DNA of 64,000 nucleotides from Myxococcus stipitatus (GCF_021412625.1 NZ_JAKCFI010000011.1:62001-126000), one strand, 5' to 3'; positions 32,941 through 40,808 are shown, counted from the stretch's first letter. Notes: generated by a model from the letters alone, not told the origin. Translations and numbers: made by a program.

Positions 32941-33948
32941 ATGGCGGACGTGGCATCCCGTCTCTCGTCGGAGTGGCGGACCTGGCTGGCGGAGAACGTG
33001 GTGCGGGGCGTGGCGACGCGGCGCCTGGTGGACGCGCTCGTGGACGCGGGGCTGGCGGAGGCGAACGCGCTCGACGAGGTGGAGGCCGTCCGGCGGGGAC
33101 TCCCGGTGGCGGAGGCGCTGCGGCGCGTGGCCTCGCACGAGGACATCCTCGCGTTGCTGGACTCGCGCGTCGCGCTCGAGCGGCAGTCGGGCTGGACGCG
33201 CAGGCTGGACCGGCGCGGGGACCTCACGCCGCGCCAGGTGGTGGAGCAGTACTACCTGCCGCACCGCCCCGTCGTGCTCGAGGGCTTCATGCGCGACTGG
33301 CCCCTCATGCGCGAGTGGACGCCGGCGCGGCTGGCCGAACGCTACGGTGACGTGGCGGTGGAGGTCATGGCGGGACGCGAGGCCCGCGCCGACCACGACG
33401 TAGAGCCGGATGCCTGTCGACAGGTGCTGCCCTTCGGAGCGTTCCTCCGTCGGCTCGAGCAGGGCGGGCCCACCAACGACCTGTACCTGACGGCCCGAAA
33501 CTTCGCCCTGGAGCGCGAGGAGCTGCGAGGGCTGCTGGAGCACGTGCGCTATCCAGAGGGCCTGTTGCGCGCGACGGACCGGGTGGGCGCGGTGAAGCTC
33601 TGGGTGGGACCGGCGGGCACGCTCACCCAGCTCCACCACGACCTGGGCTCCGTCCTCTTCGGACAGGTTCATGGACGCAAGCGCTTCCGCCTCATCCCTT
33701 CATTCCAGCTCCACCACGTCTACAGCCACCTGGAGGTGTGGAGCCAGGTCGACGCCGAGCACCCCGACCTCGCGCGCTTCCCCGCGTATCGCGAGGTGGA
33801 GGTCCTGGAGACCGTCGTCGGCCCCGGCGACATGCTGTTGATTCCCGCGGGCTGGTGGCACTGGGTGCACGCGCTCGAGGTCAGCGTGTCCGTCACCTTC
33901 CAGGAGTTCGACGTCCCCGAGGGCAACACCTGGTGGAAGCTGGGATGA
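32941..33948 (+). CDS. FIH/JmjC-type (cupin_8) hydroxylase 1
   Basis: This 335-residue Fe(II)/2-oxoglutarate oxygenase is related to the asparaginyl hydroxylase FIH and to JmjC/cupin_8 proteins. The metal triad is visible: His232-x-Asp234 in LHHDLG and distal His307 in AGWWHWV. Lys247 in HGRKRF is at the 2-oxoglutarate lysine position. The FIH-like hallmarks SQVD and TVVGPGDMLLIP are conserved. Residues 1-50 form a helical module (WRTWLAENVVRG, then LVDALVDAGL) shared with the next two proteins. Target unknown; small peptides or proteins are likely substrates. ATG 32941 follows GGAGGGGGC, a strong ribosome-binding site. Confidence 0.88.
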   Translation: MADVASRLSSEWRTWLAENVVRGVATRRLVDALVDAGLAEANALDEVEAVRRGLPVAEALRRVASHEDILALLDSRVALERQSGWTRRLDRRGDLTPRQVVEQYYLPHRPVVLEGFMRDWPLMREWTPARLAERYGDVAVEVMAGREARADHDVEPDACRQVLPFGAFLRRLEQGGPTNDLYLTARNFALEREELRGLLEHVRYPEGLLRATDRVGAVKLWVGPAGTLTQLHHDLGSVLFGQVHGRKRFRLIPSFQLHHVYSHLEVWSQVDAEHPDLARFPAYREVEVLETVVGPGDMLLIPAGWWHWVHALEVSVSVTFQEFDVPEGNTWWKLG

Positions 33949-33966
33949 ACGACGCGACGGCCGACT

Positions 33967-34134
33967 TCACTTTTCCAATGGCGGCGTCTTGGGCGGCTCC
34001 GTGGGCACGGTGCGCTCGACGCTGGGTGTCGATTGACCACCCGGGTTCGGAACGATGCGCGGCGCCGGCCGGAGGGCGGGGTTCGGCGGCGGATTCGGCA
34101 CGATCTTGGGAGTGGGATCCAATGGCGTCGTCAT
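33967..34134 (-). CDS. Small proline-rich peptide, candidate substrate
   Basis: This 55-residue minus-strand reading frame lies in the 243-base gap between the first two JmjC genes. It is one-third proline (18 of 55) and contains a duplicated motif P-K/R-I-V-P-N-P at residues 9-15 and 25-31, then a Thr/Pro-rich tail ending PPKTPPLEK. Third codon positions are strongly G/C, as in real genes of the region. The ATG at 34134 has GGGGA upstream, a modest ribosome-binding site. There is no signal peptide. The motif places an Asn between prolines, which would suit an FIH-like hydroxylase, but no experiment supports this. It could still be chance coding. Confidence 0.4.
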   Translation of the reverse strand: MTTPLDPTPKIVPNPPPNPALRPAPRIVPNPGGQSTPSVERTVPTEPPKTPPLEK

Positions 34135-34191
34135 GCGGTCCCCAGTGCGGCGTGGTGGTCTTCCCGGGTGGTATATCGCACCCTGCGAGCC

Positions 34192-35244
34192 ATGACTCCT
34201 GACACATTCCAGGAACTCGAGCCCTCGTTGTGTGCGTGGGTCGCGGAGAACCTGTCAGGTGGAGTGGAGGTGGACCTCCTGGTGGAGGTGCTGAGGGCGA
34301 CGGGGGTGGAGTCGTCCCGGGCCCGCGCGGCCGTGGTGGCCATCTGCGCGCATCCGGCGGTGTGCCAGGCCCGGGAGTCCCTGGGGCGGCGCGAGGCGCT
34401 GGAGGCGCTGCTGGAGGCCCGCTCGGCGCTCTATCGACAGTCCCTGGGCGAAGCGGGGCCGGTGGTGGAGCGGCGGCGGGGGCTGGCTCCGGAGGTGTTC
34501 TTCGAGGAGTTCTACCTGCGCAACCGCCCCGTCATCGTCGAGGGGCTCCTGGACGACTGGCCCGCGCTGTCGCGTTGGACGCCCGAATGGCTGGTGTCCC
34601 GGTTCGGCGACGAGGCGGTGGAGGTGATGGCGGGGCGCGATGGAGAGCCGGACCCCGACTTCCACGCCGAGCGTCTGCGCGCGACGGTGCCGCTGCGGAC
34701 GCTGGTGGAGCGGATGCTCGCGGGCGGCGAGTCCGACGACGTGTACCTGGTGGCTCGCAACAGCTTGTTGTTGCGCGAGGCGTTCCGGCCGCTGCTGGAC
34801 GACCTGCGCCCGCCCGCGGGCTACATCCATCCGGACCTGCGCACGCCAGACAGCGTCCACCTGTGGTTCGGCCCGGCGGGGACGCTGTCCAATCTCCACC
34901 ACGACCACCTCAACGTCTTCTTCTGCCAGGTGCTGGGGCGCAAGCGGTTCTGGTTGGCGCCCTCGTGGGAGCTCCCCTGGCTCTACAACGACCGGGGGCT
35001 GTACAGCGCGGTGGACATCCGCGCGCCCGACGCGCGTCGCCACCCCGACTTCTCGCGCGCGGCGCTGGCCTCGTGCGTGGTGGGCCCAGGGGACGCGCTG
35101 CTGATTCCCGTGGGCTGGTGGCACGCGGTGCGCGCGCTGGACGTGAGCTTGTCGGTGACGTTCGTCAACTTCGACAGGCCGGAGCGCAACGCGCAGTGGC
35201 GGAACTATTGGATCGGCCCCAGGCCGGAGAAGGTGGAGCGATGA
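34192..35244 (+). CDS. FIH/JmjC-type (cupin_8) hydroxylase 2
   Basis: This 350-residue paralogue of the preceding enzyme has an intact metal triad: His236-x-Asp238 (LHHDHL) and His311 (VGWWHAV), with Lys251 in LGRKRF for 2-oxoglutarate. Residues 12-40 repeat the shared N-terminal helical module (WVAENLSGG, then LVEVLRATGV). The aromatic-rich core FYLRNRPVIVEGLLDDWP is the cupin_8 start. The gene ends in ATGA, where the last codon overlaps the start of the third paralogue, so the two are translationally coupled. It is an iron/2-oxoglutarate hydroxylase by family; substrate unknown. Confidence 0.88.
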   Translation: MTPDTFQELEPSLCAWVAENLSGGVEVDLLVEVLRATGVESSRARAAVVAICAHPAVCQARESLGRREALEALLEARSALYRQSLGEAGPVVERRRGLAPEVFFEEFYLRNRPVIVEGLLDDWPALSRWTPEWLVSRFGDEAVEVMAGRDGEPDPDFHAERLRATVPLRTLVERMLAGGESDDVYLVARNSLLLREAFRPLLDDLRPPAGYIHPDLRTPDSVHLWFGPAGTLSNLHHDHLNVFFCQVLGRKRFWLAPSWELPWLYNDRGLYSAVDIRAPDARRHPDFSRAALASCVVGPGDALLIPVGWWHAVRALDVSLSVTFVNFDRPERNAQWRNYWIGPRPEKVER

Positions 35245-36095
35245 CGCGAGCCGGAGCTTCGCTGGCGCCCGAGTGGCGGCGATGGGTGGTGGAGAACCTG
35301 CTGCGCGGCGCGGAGGTGGAGGACCTGGTGTCCATCCTCGCGCGGGCTGGCGTGGAGTCGCACGTCGCGACCGGGGCCGTGCGCGCCGAACTGGAGGACC
35401 CGTGTTTCCAGGGCGCCGCGCGCGCCGTCGCCATGCACCGCAAGCTGGAGGGGCTGCTCGACCTGTACGGCGACCTGTACCGACAGGCCCCGGGACACGA
35501 CCGCGTCGACCGGCATGACGTCCTGTCGCCGGGGGACTTCTTCGAGCGCTACTACTTCCAGAACCGACCCGTGGTGACGCGCGCCACCGCGCGACCGCTC
35601 GACGTGGCGGCCTGGGAGCGGCTCGTCGCGGGCGTGGAGGTGGACGGTGTGACGGCGGCCGGCCGTGACGCGCCCGTCGCGCCCGCGCCCTGGCGGGAGC
35701 TCGTCGCGTTGCCCGAGGGGCTCGTGGACACGCGCGTGGCGCCGCGCCTGTGGTGGGAGAAGGCCGAGACACGAGGCGCGCTGGCGCCGGCGCGGCGCAA
35801 CGTGCTGCTGTGTCAGGTCCATGGCCGGCGGCTCGCGCGGCTCGTCCCCGCGTTCGCGTTGCATCGGGTCCAGGGGGCGTCCGCCGCGCCGGAGGACGTG
35901 CCGGTGCTGGAGGTGGAGCTCGGGCCCGGCTCGCTGGTGTTGTTGCCCGTCGGCTGGTGGTACTCGTGGCACGCGCCGGAGGGGGGGGCCGCGCTCGCCT
36001 TCGAGGCCTTCCTCGCGCCCGAGCCGAACGTGGACTGGGCACCGGGACGCAAGCCGCGCGAGCCTACGCCTCCTCCTCGTGTCCGTCTGGATTGA
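35241..36095 (+). CDS. Degenerate JmjC/FIH paralogue, probable pseudoenzyme
   Basis: This 284-residue third copy has all three iron ligands and the co-substrate lysine replaced. Aligned with paralogue 2, His236 and Asp238 become Ala182 and Ala184, Lys251 becomes Arg197, and distal His311 becomes Tyr241. It also lacks about 60 residues of the central region. The shared N-terminal helical module (WVVENLLRG) and the FYLRNRP-like segment (YYFQNRPVV) remain. It is therefore unlikely to be an oxygenase and may instead bind the same partner, as a decoy or subunit. The frame is intact, so the gene is under selection. ATG 35241 overlaps the previous stop. The 3' end overlaps the convergent small gene by 32 bases. 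Confidence 0.88.
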   Translation: MTRAGASLAPEWRRWVVENLLRGAEVEDLVSILARAGVESHVATGAVRAELEDPCFQGAARAVAMHRKLEGLLDLYGDLYRQAPGHDRVDRHDVLSPGDFFERYYFQNRPVVTRATARPLDVAAWERLVAGVEVDGVTAAGRDAPVAPAPWRELVALPEGLVDTRVAPRLWWEKAETRGALAPARRNVLLCQVHGRRLARLVPAFALHRVQGASAAPEDVPVLEVELGPGSLVLLPVGWWYSWHAPEGGAALAFEAFLAPEPNVDWAPGRKPREPTPPPRVRLD

Positions 36096-36447
36096 GCAGC
36101 GTGCGCGCGAGCTGTCGCAGGGCGGGGGCGACGGGCTCCTGCTCCAGCCGCCGCAGCGAGTCCTTCGCGGCGTCGAGCCGCCCGGCCTGGTGGAGGAGCT
36201 TCAACGCGCGGTACTGGAGCAGCTCCTCGGGGGGCATGGAGTGGGGGACGGGGGGCTGGCCTCGCAAGGGAAGGCGGCCTCGCTGCGATAGCAGGTCGAG
36301 CAACACGTCGGCGTCCTCGGTTGCCAGCGCCTCGGGGGCCTGCTCCATCTGCTCCAAGGCCTCCATCAGCTCGCTCCAGGCGAAGCCACCGGATGGGGGC
36401 TTGCGCTCCGCCACCATCCGCCTGAGCTGTTCGCGTGTCGTCGACAT
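36064..36447 (-). CDS. Small helical protein, unknown
   Basis: This 127-residue predicted helical protein is charged and has no signal peptide. Segments such as WSELMEALEQMEQAPEALA and LLQYRALKLLHQAGRLDAAKDS look like two TPR-like helical pairs. It follows the transglutaminase-like gene by 8 bases on the minus strand, so it is the last gene of the CHAT/transglutaminase-like operon. It ends in a 32-base tail-to-tail overlap with the third JmjC gene. Function unknown. I chose ATG 36447; a GTG at 36468 would add seven residues. Confidence 0.7.
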   Translation of the reverse strand: MSTTREQLRRMVAERKPPSGGFAWSELMEALEQMEQAPEALATEDADVLLDLLSQRGRLPLRGQPPVPHSMPPEELLQYRALKLLHQAGRLDAAKDSLRRLEQEPVAPALRQLARTLLNPDGHEEEA

Positions 36448-36455
36448 GGCCGCTC

Positions 36456-37727
36456 CTAGCGTGTCCACATGATGTCGAGCTCAGGGACCTGCTCCGTCCG
36501 GACGGTGATGCCGAAGTCACCCCGCTCCAGGTCCACCTCCCACAGCCTGCCGTTCGCGCGCAGCGTGCCCATCAGGAACGGCAGCGTCGGATGGAGGTAG
36601 CGTTCGCGGAACGGCGAACCCCGTCCCATCCGGACGGGCCTGCCATCGTCCGGGGGCAGGGCCATCTCCAGCTCCACGGCCCTCGACAGGAAGCAGGCGT
36701 CGTAGAGGTACAGCCTTCCCGCGTCCTCCAGGAAGTTGAGGCAGTGGCCATCGTCCCAGCCCGCCATGAAGCAGTAGCGCGCCGCGTGGCGGCTCAAGAG
36801 CTCCACGGGCTCCTCGGGCGTGAAGGGATACCGCGCGCAATCGTTGAAGCGCCCCTGCATCCGGGTGTGCCGGCTGGGCTCGACCTGGTTGATGCCGGGG
36901 TCCACGGCCACCATCGCCTCCCACCGGACCTCGTCCGTGCGCGGGTCGTCTCCCGGCGCCAGGTGCAGCGTGCGCCCCTCCAGCTGGACGCCCTGGCAGT
37001 TGGCCAGCTGCTGGAACAGTTGATACCAGCCGCCACACATCCCACCGCCCGCCACCAGCATGTGGCGCACCGTCCACGCCGGGACGCCGAAGCGCAGCCC
37101 CGTCTCCGGCAGGCCCCGCAGGAGCGCGTCGCAGATGTCCTTGCGTGACTCCAACCCCGCGCACCACCGCGAGGACCACCGCATGAGCGGCGCGTACGCG
37201 CCGGAGGGCGGAGCGCCGTGCTCGCCCTGGCGCATGGGGGCGCCCGTGGTGAACAGCTCGTGCCGGCTGCCGCCGAGGAAGAGCCGTCGCTGCGTGCCGT
37301 CCGCGTCCGTCCACTCCGCGACCCACTGGAGCTCCAGCGTGTGCGCGCCCACCTGGTTGGGCAGGGGCCGGTTGAAGGCGAGCGGCTCCTCGAGGGTGGT
37401 CCACCCGGCCAGGCGCTCCAGCGTCACCGGATGGGGACCCACCCAGCGGATGGACGCGCTGGGGCCCGGGCCCGCGGACAGCGGCGGGCCGAAGGCGCTG
37501 AGGTCGAAGGAGGCGGGGACGAAGTGGTGGGCCAGCAGCGTCACGCCCACGCGAGGCCGCGCGCCGCGCACGTAGGCCACCGGCTCCGAGCGATGGTCGC
37601 GGATCCACTCCGGCCGCTCGCCCAGGCGCGTCTGGGTGATGGGACACCACAACGGAATCGCGCCGCAATCCGTTGCGCCCTGGTCGAAGTGCAGGCTGAA
37701 GACGGCCAGCGGTTGCTCCTGGAGCAT
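36456..37727 (-). CDS. Transglutaminase/cysteine-protease-like protein
   Basis: This 423-residue protein has a papain-like/transglutaminase catalytic pattern: Cys231 in GGGMCGGWYQLFQQL, His328 in WDDGHCLNFL and Asp343 in LYLYDACF. The C-H-D order and surrounding glycines fit the transglutaminase fold. The first 200 residues are strand-rich and unrecognised. There is no signal peptide. I chose ATG 37727, which follows GGGGGGAAGG, a strong ribosome-binding site; an ATG at 37820 that overlaps the CHAT stop would add 31 basic residues with unusual codons. It could be a peptide cross-linker, protease or deamidase. It lies between the CHAT gene and the small helical gene, facing the JmjC genes. Confidence 0.65.
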   Translation of the reverse strand: MLQEQPLAVFSLHFDQGATDCGAIPLWCPITQTRLGERPEWIRDHRSEPVAYVRGARPRVGVTLLAHHFVPASFDLSAFGPPLSAGPGPSASIRWVGPHPVTLERLAGWTTLEEPLAFNRPLPNQVGAHTLELQWVAEWTDADGTQRRLFLGGSRHELFTTGAPMRQGEHGAPPSGAYAPLMRWSSRWCAGLESRKDICDALLRGLPETGLRFGVPAWTVRHMLVAGGGMCGGWYQLFQQLANCQGVQLEGRTLHLAPGDDPRTDEVRWEAMVAVDPGINQVEPSRHTRMQGRFNDCARYPFTPEEPVELLSRHAARYCFMAGWDDGHCLNFLEDAGRLYLYDACFLSRAVELEMALPPDDGRPVRMGRGSPFRERYLHPTLPFLMGTLRANGRLWEVDLERGDFGITVRTEQVPELDIMWTR

Positions 37728-37812: not shown

Positions 37813-40581
37813 CTACTCATACAACAAGACGCGCGTCACCCATGGCGCTCCCCGCTCCTCGCGCAGCCACCTCAGGCGCTCGGCGCGAAGGGCCACCGCG
37901 GGGGCGGCGCCTTCGTGGATGCGCTCGCGCACCCCCTGGAAGAAGCGGCCCGCGGAGTCCGGGATGTCCACCGTCGCGGCGAACACCGCGCGCGCCCCCG
38001 AGCCGATGAACGCCTGGGGCAGCGACGACGTCTGGTGGATGAGGGGCGGCACCCGCGCCGCGCTGCACGCGCCCAGCAGCACCACCGGCGAGCCCTTGAG
38101 CCGCACCTGCCGCAGCGCCTCCGCGGTCAGCGCATAGCGGCCGTCGTACTCCGGCGCGAGCGCGATGACCGGCGCCTCCGACAGGCTTCGGTCCACCACG
38201 CCGTGCGCGTGGAACTCGATGTCCGTCGCCTGGGCCATGGCCTCCAGCACGCGCGTGGGCGTGGCCTGCGCCCCGGCCAGTTCGAGCGAGCGGCCGATGG
38301 GCACCGGGGTGGTCTCCCAGGACGACAGGCGCGCCAGCCCGAGCTGCGAGGGCGTCTCCACGTTGGCCACCATGACGTGGAGCGGGGGCGCCGTCGTCCC
38401 AGGGGCGGCGGCCGGGGCGGGGGTGGCCCCCACGCGGTAGCTCCAGGCCATCTCCGGGGGGAGCAGGCCCGCGCGGCTGTCGAGCGGCGGCGCGGCCAGG
38501 ACCTCCACCTGGGGACAGGCGCGCAGGAGCGCCAGCAGAGGGGCCGGCACCAGCCCCGAGAGGTCTTCTCCCAGGGGCTCCTTGCGCGTGGCGTCGTGGT
38601 GCCCGAGCACCTCGCCCGACCGGCCCAGGGCCACCACCACGGTGCGCTCGGCCTCCATCGCCGCCACCAGGGCGCACCGGCCCGGACGGCGCACACCGAG
38701 CTGCTCGGCGACCATGTCGGGCACCTCGGCGAAGGCCCCCGCCTGCCCCGCGCTCACCGCCATCGTCTGGAAGGCCACCGCGCGGGCGTCGCGCGCGTCG
38801 GCGTCCGTGCGCAGCAGCGGCTCGGCCTCGGCGATGGTCCGCCGCAGCAGGGCGTTCCCCGCGGCCCGGTCCCGCACCAGCTCCAGGCGCGCCTCGATGA
38901 GGGTGGTGAGCACCCGCCTGCCCGGCGTCTCGCGGTCGGCGCGCGAGCGGGCCACCTCGCCGCGCACCTGCTCCGCGTCGCTGGCCCGCGGATCCAGCCG
39001 CGCCAGGTCCGCCAGCGTCCACGCGCCCACCAGCCCCACGGACGCGCCACAGGCCTGGGCCCGGTCCAGCGCCTCGCGCGCCGCCAGGGGCCGCAGGCGC
39101 ATCATCTCCAGCGCCGCCAGGTTGCGGTGGACGTAGTTCTTCACGCCGCACGCATCCGGCGCCCGCGCGAGGTACTCGAGGAGATAGGCCCGGGAGGACG
39201 CGACGCGGAACTGATACCGGGCCGCCTGCGCGAGCGCGCGCAAGGCCTGCGACTCCAGCTCCCACTCGCCCACCGTCTGGGCCTCGCGCCAGGACGCCCG
39301 CGCCGTCGACTCCGCCTCCGCCAACCGGTTGGACGCGGTCGCGCGGTGGCTCATCTTGTAGAGCAGCTCCGCGCAGCGCGGACGCAGCTGGTGCTCGCGG
39401 CACAGCTCGAGCGCGCCTTGCAGCCGCTGGTTCGCGCGCCAGTACGCCCCCGCGAGGTCGTCCTGCCGCGCCAGCTCGTCCTGCACCAGCACCTGGACCC
39501 AAGGGTCGTTCCAGCGGCGGGCCAGCGCCTCCAGCTCCTCGGTCGTGCCCCGCCCCCCGGGCGGCAACAGCAGCGCCCCGAGCAGCAGATCGTCCTCTCC
39601 CGACGCGCGCAGCCGCTGGAGGAAGTCCGCGGACTGCTCGCCCCGGCGTTGGACGTACCGCACGTACTCGGCGGCCAGGGGCGCGCGCTTCTGGAAGTCG
39701 CGCGCGGCGACCCGGCGCACGTACGCGGCGAGGGCGGTGCCCCCGTGCACCTGGTCCAGGTACTCCGCCAGCGGCAGCAGCGCCAGCACGCGGGTGGATG
39801 TGGGGGCGATGCGCATGGCCTCGTAGAACTGCTTCCGGGCCGTGCCCGGGTGGCGACGCGCGTCCTCCAGCGAGATGGGCGCACCGACGTCGGACGCGAG
39901 CGCGGCGAGCGCGGCCTGGGTCCGTCTCCAACCGTCCTCCCGCTCCCGGACGCCCTGGCGCAGGAAGGTGGCCTGCTCCTGCGCCTCCTGACTCCACCCA
40001 CGCTCCTTCAGCGCGGCGACCTCGTCGAACACGGACGCCGCCAGCAGGTGCAGCCCCATCTCCCGCAGCACGAGCGCCCGGTTCCACAACGCCTGGGGAT
40101 GGCGCGGGGCCCGCTCCAACAGCGCGTCCAGCTCCGCGAGCGCGTCGTCCGGGTGCTCGAGCAGGAACACCGCCACGGCGTGGTCGTTGTCCCTGTCCCG
40201 GGAGTCGGGCGCCTGGGCGAGGTGCGCCAGCGCCTGCCGCGGGTCTCCGTGCAGGAGGTAGGAGGCCGCGATGCCCGCGCGGTCCCCCGCGTCCTCCAGT
40301 CGCGCCAGCTCCCGCAGGGGCACCGGGATGGAGGGCCGCTCCAGGCGCGGACGGACATACGGCCGGTGCACGTCCGCTTCCTTCACGGAGACACGGGGCT
40401 CGAGGGGCCGCGTGGGCGCGTCCGTCAGCCACAACAGCGCCGCGCGCCGCCCGGGCAGGGGACCGGAGCGCGCGATGAGCAGGGCCGGCAGCACCAGCAG
40501 CGGGAGCAGCTTCCACATACGGGGGCGCAACGCGCGGCGCACGCGTCGACACCACCCCGGTGCATCCAGCCCGGCCACCAT
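37813..40581 (-). CDS. Membrane-anchored TPR-CHAT protease
   Basis: This 922-residue protein has a single hydrophobic helix near residues 20-40 (WKLLPLLVLPALLIA, preceded by many Arg), then about 650 residues of helical repeats of TPR type. A C-terminal CHAT (caspase HetF-associated) domain follows. The catalytic dyad is visible: His793 in FHAHGVVD and Cys839 in LLGACSAARV, separated by 46 residues as in caspase-like folds. CHAT proteases cut specific proteins, often as effectors regulated by a sensor. The cytoplasmic N-terminus and single pass imply that the rest is periplasmic or cytosolic, depending on orientation. I chose ATG 40581 (GGGAGG before it). It is the first gene of a minus-strand operon with the transglutaminase-like protein. 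Confidence 0.85.
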   Translation of the reverse strand: MVAGLDAPGWCRRVRRALRPRMWKLLPLLVLPALLIARSGPLPGRRAALLWLTDAPTRPLEPRVSVKEADVHRPYVRPRLERPSIPVPLRELARLEDAGDRAGIAASYLLHGDPRQALAHLAQAPDSRDRDNDHAVAVFLLEHPDDALAELDALLERAPRHPQALWNRALVLREMGLHLLAASVFDEVAALKERGWSQEAQEQATFLRQGVREREDGWRRTQAALAALASDVGAPISLEDARRHPGTARKQFYEAMRIAPTSTRVLALLPLAEYLDQVHGGTALAAYVRRVAARDFQKRAPLAAEYVRYVQRRGEQSADFLQRLRASGEDDLLLGALLLPPGGRGTTEELEALARRWNDPWVQVLVQDELARQDDLAGAYWRANQRLQGALELCREHQLRPRCAELLYKMSHRATASNRLAEAESTARASWREAQTVGEWELESQALRALAQAARYQFRVASSRAYLLEYLARAPDACGVKNYVHRNLAALEMMRLRPLAAREALDRAQACGASVGLVGAWTLADLARLDPRASDAEQVRGEVARSRADRETPGRRVLTTLIEARLELVRDRAAGNALLRRTIAEAEPLLRTDADARDARAVAFQTMAVSAGQAGAFAEVPDMVAEQLGVRRPGRCALVAAMEAERTVVVALGRSGEVLGHHDATRKEPLGEDLSGLVPAPLLALLRACPQVEVLAAPPLDSRAGLLPPEMAWSYRVGATPAPAAAPGTTAPPLHVMVANVETPSQLGLARLSSWETTPVPIGRSLELAGAQATPTRVLEAMAQATDIEFHAHGVVDRSLSEAPVIALAPEYDGRYALTAEALRQVRLKGSPVVLLGACSAARVPPLIHQTSSLPQAFIGSGARAVFAATVDIPDSAGRFFQGVRERIHEGAAPAVALRAERLRWLREERGAPWVTRVLLYE

Positions 40582-40808
40582 CCGCTGGACCCTCCCCGTC
40601 ACTCCGCGTCCCAGTGGCGGAGTCAGCACTGCAACCCAGGGTCATAAGCCAATTCACCCAGAGGGGACAAATCAGGCCGGTGGGGACGTGCCGCCTGGAC
40701 AACGTGGCGGTGGGCGCCATGCCCCCCCCGCTGACCCAGGGAGGGCGCTGGAGACCCTGGACCCAGGTGGGGTGTGTCTCGGGAGCGCTGGGCACACCCG
40801 TCACCTGG

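What the first reader, a model, noticed from the sequence alone, without database searches (positions are those of the whole stretch)
32941..36095. Three JmjC/FIH paralogues with a shared N-terminal module, one a pseudoenzyme
Three neighbouring plus-strand genes encode cupin_8/FIH-like proteins with the same N-terminal helical module (W-V-x-E-N-L-x-x-G, then a hydrophobic L-V-x-x-L-x-x-x-G-V). Copies 1 and 2 keep the HxD...H iron triad (His232/Asp234/His307 and His236/Asp238/His311). Copy 3 has Ala, Ala and Tyr at those positions and Arg at the co-substrate lysine, but its frame is intact and it is fused by ATGA overlap to copy 2. A catalytic pair plus an inactive paralogue suggests a complex, a decoy or a substrate-binding subunit.
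Basis: partly seen in the sequence, partly recalled or inferred. Interest (0 to 1): 0.72.

Follow-up and report, generated by a model that had tools for sequence, protein, structure and literature searches.

The report
Enzyme trio with one dead copy
Soil myxobacteria carry a conserved set of three neighbouring genes for oxygen-dependent protein-modifying enzymes, the third of which long ago lost its iron-binding site but has been kept intact across seven genera, probably as a non-catalytic partner protein in a signalling locus with a caspase-like protease.

Summary
Three plus-strand genes encode JmjC/cupin_8 proteins with a shared N-terminal helical module. C1 and C2 keep the HxD...H iron triad; C3 has Ala182, Ala184, Tyr241, and Arg197 at the lysine. 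C1>C2>C3 recurs in 39 Myxococcaceae genomes (C2>C3 in 42). The triad is invariant in all C1 and C2; the full set is absent from 41 of 42 C3, and the exception (G006) branches first. C3 is not decaying: it is predicted to fold well and overlaps C2 by 4 nt in 41 of 42 genomes. Its constraint is inverted: its core diverges faster than in C1/C2 in 16/16 genome pairs, while its N-module is more conserved than theirs. Two corrections: the closest solved relatives are JMJD5/KDM8, not FIH; and the unit is larger than the trio. A TPR-CHAT (caspase-like) gene adjoins most trios. A single-copy active paralogue (C4) has its own TPR-CHAT neighbour in 44/50 loci, with ECF sigma and zf-HC2/TPR genes in the four read. 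Best reading: C3 is a non-catalytic adaptor of C2, acting through its N-module, in an oxygenase branch of an ECF-sigma/CHAT system. Complex formation, substrate and protease function are inferred.

The parts
32941..33948 (+). C1: JMJD5-like JmjC/cupin_8 oxygenase, N-module + DSBH core, triad H232/D234/H307, Lys247
   Evidence: triad invariant in 40 C1 rows
34192..35244 (+). C2: JMJD5-like JmjC/cupin_8 oxygenase, triad H236/D238/H311, Lys251
   Evidence: pLDDT 88.6; Z 28.7 to JMJD5; triad invariant in 42 C2 rows
35241..36095 (+). C3: pseudo-oxygenase; A182/A184/Y241 at the triad, R197 at the 2OG lysine; shortened core; conserved N-module
   Evidence: pLDDT 89.5, pTM 0.80; Z 16.7 to JMJD5
35241..35244 (+). 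ATGA overlap of C2 stop and C3 start; 4-nt overlap (ATGA 38, GTGA 3) kept in 41 of 42 genomes
35262..35492 (+). N-terminal helical module of C3 (residues 8-84), more conserved than the same module of C1 or C2; acidic
36064..36468 (-). X36064: small protein of unknown function next to C3 in most Myxococcus/Pyxidicoccus trio loci and in G006 and G041
36456..37727 (-). X36456: 423-aa protein without Pfam, NCBIfam or PDB match; invariant C231/H328/D343 suggests a cysteine-peptidase/transglutaminase-like active site (inferred); found only in genomes with C3
37813..40629 (-). TPR-CHAT protein (N-terminal membrane segment, TPR, CHAT-like C-terminus with invariant HxHG His and Cys)
   Evidence: PF12770 hits the C4-linked paralogue, not this divergent copy

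Best explanation
C3 is a pseudo-oxygenase that works as a non-catalytic partner of the active JMJD5-like oxygenase C2. It is made from the same message by translational coupling, and its acidic N-terminal helical module docks the oxygenase onto a client. C1 and C2 hydroxylate a protein using Fe(II), 2-oxoglutarate and O2. The most likely target or client lies in the linked ECF-sigma / zf-HC2 anti-sigma-TPR / TPR-CHAT machinery, where a caspase-like CHAT peptidase would control an anti-sigma factor, as Csx29 does with Csx30 in the type III-E CRISPR system. Shown here: gene order, triad states, stepwise loss of the metal site on one clade, the conserved overlap, the inverted constraint, and the linkage to TPR-CHAT and, in some loci, ECF sigma/anti-sigma genes. 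Inferred: C2-C3 binding, hydroxylation, the target, and cleavage of an anti-sigma factor.
For: Trio in the same order and strand in 39 genomes, C2-C3 in 42. Triad HDH in all C1, C2 and C4 rows; full set absent in 41/42 C3. C3 is one clade; G006 C3 (HDH kept, Lys to Arg) branches first, then G041 C3 (only the distal His kept), then the other 40. 4-nt C2/C3 overlap in 41/42, the exception being G006, while the C1-C2 gap is 220-306 nt in all. N-module/core divergence ratio C1 2.31, C2 2.30, C3 0.54 over 16 genome pairs; C3 core faster in 16/16, C3 N-module slower in 13 v 1 (C1) and 14 v 2 (C2). Median dN/dS C1 0.39, C2 0.36, C3 0.54, all C3 pairs below 1. Folded model. C4 is convergent with TPR-CHAT in 44/50 loci, gap 12-71 nt; ECF sigma and zf-HC2/TPR genes at four C4 loci and the G006 trio; other TPR-CHAT genes sit behind an ECF sigma, two with zf-HC2 fused to CHAT. 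CHAT His/Cys invariant 42/42. Csx29 cleaves the sigma inhibitor Csx30 (PMC10028731).
Against: No complex was modelled; only single chains could be folded. Mirror-tree partial correlations show no C3-C2 signal beyond C3-C1. Four trio loci lack an adjacent CHAT gene (L050, L067-L069), and nearly all, including the window, have no ECF sigma or anti-sigma gene next to them, so C3 does not need them nearby. The TPR and CHAT parts follow a membrane segment and look extracytoplasmic, while the oxygenases have no signal peptide (own reading of the sequence), so direct contact would have to be on the cytoplasmic side. The N-module is the less conserved part of C1 and C2, so its role in the active copies is unclear.
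Confidence: 0.45

Rival explanations
1. C3 is a free-standing regulator or decoy: it binds the same substrate or client as C1/C2 (through the N-module or the dead pocket) and limits their access, without forming a stable complex with C2.
For: C3 keeps the fold and the shared N-module at high conservation; a common fate of pseudoenzymes (own knowledge).
Against: The dead core is the fastest-evolving part, and matches to it are split around residues 117-180 in several genomes (G054, G058, G059, G064), so a conserved substrate pocket is unlikely; the 4-nt overlap with C2 points to stoichiometric co-production.
Confidence: 0.2
2. The N-module binds DNA and C3 is a transcriptional regulator that uses a dead cupin core for dimerisation, comparable to the cupin-domain repressor Esi of Sorangium.
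For: Esi, a JmjC/cupin-like protein with a ~106-aa N-terminal domain, binds a promoter inverted repeat (PMC5442856); small helical bundles often bind DNA; related loci include sigma factors.
Against: C3 N-modules are all acidic (mean net charge -3.6); homology to the Esi N-domain was not tested, and Esi's is modelled with beta sheets whereas this module is all helix.
Confidence: 0.12
3. C3 is a degenerating duplicate under relaxed selection without a function.
For: Higher dN/dS than C1/C2; missing stretches of core in some genomes; one decayed second copy of the cluster (L077).
Against: Open frame in 42 genomes of seven genera, N-module more conserved than in the active copies, 41/42 exact overlaps with C2, well-folded model.
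Confidence: 0.05
4. C3 retains a different catalytic activity or another metal site.
For: Dead active sites can be repurposed; the fold is intact.
Against: No His or Cys column is conserved (90% or more) among the 41 triad-less C3; the only such acidic columns (E11, E18, E50, E70, D74) are in the N-module.
Confidence: 0.04

Closest known systems
JMJD5/KDM8 (JmjC arginyl C3-hydroxylase)
   Same: C2 core superposes at Z 28.7, rmsd 2.1 over 228 residues, 32% identity; best PDB sequence match E 1.8e-47; same HxD...H triad.
   Different: Match covers the core only, not the N-module; C3 has lost the metal ligands and lysine; substrate here unknown.
FIH (asparaginyl hydroxylase)
   Same: Same superfamily and triad (Z about 21).
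   Different: More distant than JMJD5, JMJD7 and TYW5; C2 has no predicted C-terminal helices like FIH's dimerisation helices.
JARID2 (JmjC pseudoenzyme of PRC2)
   Same: A JmjC protein that lost iron ligands and is assigned as catalytically inactive (PMC4140284); works as a complex subunit (own knowledge).
   Different: Eukaryotic chromatin protein; C3 is bacterial, encoded beside its active paralogues and overlapping one of them.
Craspase: Csx29 (TPR-CHAT) / Csx30 / CASP-sigma
   Same: TPR-CHAT protease linked to control of a sigma factor through an inhibitor (PMC10028731).
   Different: CRISPR genes were not searched for here and none was seen; these loci add oxygenases and a membrane zf-HC2-TPR protein.
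ECF54 sigma factors with CHAT-domain neighbours
   Same: ECF sigma genes with CHAT proteins in their context were noted before (PMC8999054).
   Different: No oxygenase partner is mentioned in the passage read; the ECF group of these sigma factors was not determined.
Esi, cupin-domain repressor of epothilone genes
   Same: Myxobacterial JmjC/cupin-like protein with an extra N-terminal domain (PMC5442856).
   Different: DNA-binding repressor; N-domain not shown to be related; C3 N-module is acidic.

Membership tests
JMJD5-like JmjC/cupin_8 Fe(II)/2OG oxygenases (C1, C2) | DSBH fold most like JMJD5 | tested here: met
   C2 model Z 28.7; profile E 1.8e-47; Cupin_8 above cut-off for C1 and C2
JMJD5-like JmjC/cupin_8 Fe(II)/2OG oxygenases (C1, C2) | HxD...H triad and 2OG lysine | tested here: met
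   Invariant in 40 C1 and 42 C2 rows
JMJD5-like JmjC/cupin_8 Fe(II)/2OG oxygenases (C1, C2) | Arginyl hydroxylation of a protein substrate | not testable with these tools
   needs an in vitro assay
Active Fe(II)/2OG oxygenases (C3) | HxD...H triad and 2OG lysine | tested here: not met
   A182/A184/Y241/R197 in the window; full triad absent in 41/42 orthologues
JmjC pseudoenzyme (C3) | Fold kept, metal ligands lost, gene maintained | tested here: met
   (fold from a prediction)
FIH | Closest to FIH among solved JmjC structures | tested here: not met
   JMJD5 E 1.8e-47 v FIH 1e-27; Z 28.7 v 21.4
FIH | C-terminal dimerisation helices | tested here: not met
   no predicted helix after residue 324 of C2
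CHAT peptidase (37813-40629) | catalytic His and Cys | tested here: met
   invariant in 42/42 aligned sequences
CHAT peptidase (37813-40629) | Pfam CHAT model | tested here: inconclusive
   window copy has only TPR matches; C4-linked paralogue 3.4e-16
Craspase (type III-E CRISPR) | Cas7-11/gRAMP and CRISPR array in the locus | not tested
   not searched; none of the neighbours read suggests it

The most novel reading that the evidence does not exclude
An O2/iron/2-oxoglutarate-dependent oxygenase pair with a dedicated pseudo-oxygenase subunit sets the activity of a bacterial TPR-CHAT protease that controls an ECF sigma factor: a bacterial counterpart of oxygenase-controlled signalling.
Probability: 0.2. 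Interest if true: 0.85.

Novelty: new variant of a known kind. Interest (0 to 1): 0.55.

Why it matters
JmjC pseudoenzymes are known from eukaryotic chromatin complexes, but the paper searches here turned up no bacterial case. Here one is kept next to its active paralogues across a bacterial family, with the loss of the metal site visible step by step on a tree, so one can test what a dead oxygenase is for. The linkage to caspase-like TPR-CHAT and sigma/anti-sigma genes gives bacterial JMJD5-like oxygenases a concrete context and a candidate pathway that can be tested in Myxococcus strains carrying only the simpler one-oxygenase locus.

Tried and rejected
FIH assignment: rejected, JMJD5 is closer by sequence and structure. 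Pseudogene: rejected on conservation and overlap. Alternative metal site in C3: no conserved His or Cys. Mirror-tree test for C2-C3 coevolution: no specific signal. Anti-phage defence: no PADLOC match above noise for the trio or neighbours. X36456: no Pfam, NCBIfam or PDB relative, so its enzyme class rests on the invariant Cys/His/Asp only. Nannocystis, Paraliomyxa, cyanobacterial and planctomycete relatives have no TPR-CHAT gene within the DNA held. Paper searches for JmjC with CHAT, or bacterial JmjC pseudoenzymes, showed no prior description among the listed papers; most subscription-journal papers are not held.

Full report
Observation. Residue numbers hold: C1 H232/D234/H307, C2 H236/D238/H311, C3 A182/A184/Y241 and R197 at the lysine. 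C2 and C3 overlap by ATGA. Pfam calls C1 and C2 Cupin_8 strongly and C3 only weakly. The N-module is confined to these proteins: in the window's genome a profile finds C1, C2, C3 and one paralogue, C4, and nothing else significant; across 195 genomes of the phylum 52 of the 56 genomes with a hit are Myxococcaceae.

What they are. Profiles and a confident model of C2 (pLDDT 88.6) put it next to JMJD5/KDM8 (E 1.8e-47; Z 28.7 over 228 residues), ahead of JMJD7, TYW5 and FIH. C3 is predicted to fold (pLDDT 89.5, pTM 0.80) and still matches JMJD5 best (Z 16.7 over 171 residues; tied with TYW5 and JMJD7 within about 1 to 2 units).

Conservation. A family-wide search and 50 fetched regions gave C1>C2>C3 in one order and strand in 39 or more genomes including the window, and C2>C3 in 42 (in one assembly, G027, C1 lies on another contig). 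They fall in seven genera as the database groups them; named members include Myxococcus, Pyxidicoccus, Corallococcus, Citreicoccus and Hyalangium. Several 9-Mb genomes of the window's genus lack the trio and carry only C4. In the tree each of C1, C2, C3 and C4 is one group (quick method, support 84 for C2, 95 or more for the others). G006 C3 keeps HDH with Lys changed to Arg and branches first; G041 C3 keeps only the distal His and branches next; the other 40 have lost the site, although single ligands survive in two (distal His in L063, first His in L074). This fits one stepwise loss in a gene that was already part of the trio. G006 and G041 sit on long branches, so their exact order is less sure than the grouping.

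C3 is maintained. The 4-nt C2/C3 overlap (ATGA 38, GTGA 3) is present in 41 of 42; the exception is G006, the one with an intact triad. C1-C2 spacing is 220-306 nt throughout, so C2-C3 looks like the coupled pair. Over 16 roughly independent genome pairs, the N-module/core divergence ratio is 2.31 (C1), 2.30 (C2) and 0.54 (C3); the C3 core is faster in 16/16 pairs and its N-module slower in 13 v 1 and 14 v 2 (Wilcoxon p 1.5e-5 and 1e-4). Median dN/dS is 0.39, 0.36 and 0.54 (Nei-Gojobori, dS<1; the GC-rich codon usage inflates such values, so only the comparison counts). Selection on C3 has therefore shifted from the catalytic core to the N-module, which is acidic in every C3. No His or Cys column is conserved in triad-less C3.

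The larger unit. Of the window's neighbours, a TPR-CHAT gene (37813-40629) recurs beside the trio across genera where other neighbours change. In Corallococcus and Citreicoccus it is convergent with C3 at short distance; in G006 C1, C2, C3, CHAT, X36456 and X36064 are co-directional, with a divergent ECF sigma gene and a zf-HC2/TPR gene upstream. Four trio loci lack CHAT (L050, L067-L069). X36456 is found in 20 genomes of the family and in no other of the 193 phylum genomes searched, each time in a genome with C3; it has invariant Cys231, His328 and Asp343 and no known relative.

The C4 locus repeats the theme: C4 is convergent with a TPR-CHAT gene in 44 of 50 loci at 12-71 nt, and in the four such loci read in full an ECF sigma and a zf-HC2/TPR gene lie on its other side. 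Other TPR-CHAT genes sit just behind an ECF sigma gene, and two of three examined carry zf-HC2 fused to TPR-CHAT. The trio-linked and C4-linked CHAT proteins are separate clades (FastTree). CHAT His and Cys are invariant in 42 of 42. TPR-CHAT control of a sigma factor through cleavage of its inhibitor is supported for Csx29/Csx30 (PMC10028731), and CHAT neighbours were noted for ECF54 (PMC8999054).

Interpretation. I take C3 to be an adaptor subunit of C2 (0.45), with the oxygenases feeding into an ECF-sigma/CHAT system. Steps shown: architecture, evolution, constraint, linkage. Steps inferred: binding, hydroxylation, target, cleavage. The mirror-tree test did not support a C2-specific link, and no complex could be modelled. 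A decoy role (0.2) and DNA binding (0.12) remain open.

Membership. C1 and C2 meet the sequence and fold criteria of JMJD5-like oxygenases; their activity is untested. C3 fails the criteria of an active oxygenase and meets those of a JmjC pseudoenzyme. The FIH label is not met. It is a new variant of a known kind: dead JmjC subunits are known in eukaryotes (JARID2; PMC4140284), and what differs is the bacterial setting, the coding beside active paralogues and the CHAT/sigma context.

Noticed in passing
36456-37727 (-): Protein family without any Pfam, NCBIfam or PDB relative, with invariant Cys/His/Asp, found only in C3-bearing genomes.
   Followed up: partly
L083 3779-10018 (own genome, contig C10): Second oxygenase locus: TPR-CHAT, C4, ECF sigma, zf-HC2/TPR; the simpler form, present also in genomes of the genus without the trio.
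   Followed up: partly
L077 7155-10255: Second, decayed copy of the cluster in G054 (Pyxidicoccus caerfyrddinensis): fragments of C2 and C3, no C1.
   Followed up: no
L075 6334-7239: Only C3 with an intact HDH triad (but Arg at the lysine) and without the overlap with C2: the ancestral-like state.
   Followed up: yes
L154 3863-11527, L157 3497-11029: Two ECF sigma/TPR-CHAT pairs in tandem, without an oxygenase.
   Followed up: no
L120-L124: Relatives with the N-module and an intact triad in Nannocystis, Paraliomyxa, a cyanobacterial and a planctomycete MAG, without a CHAT neighbour in the DNA held.
   Followed up: partly
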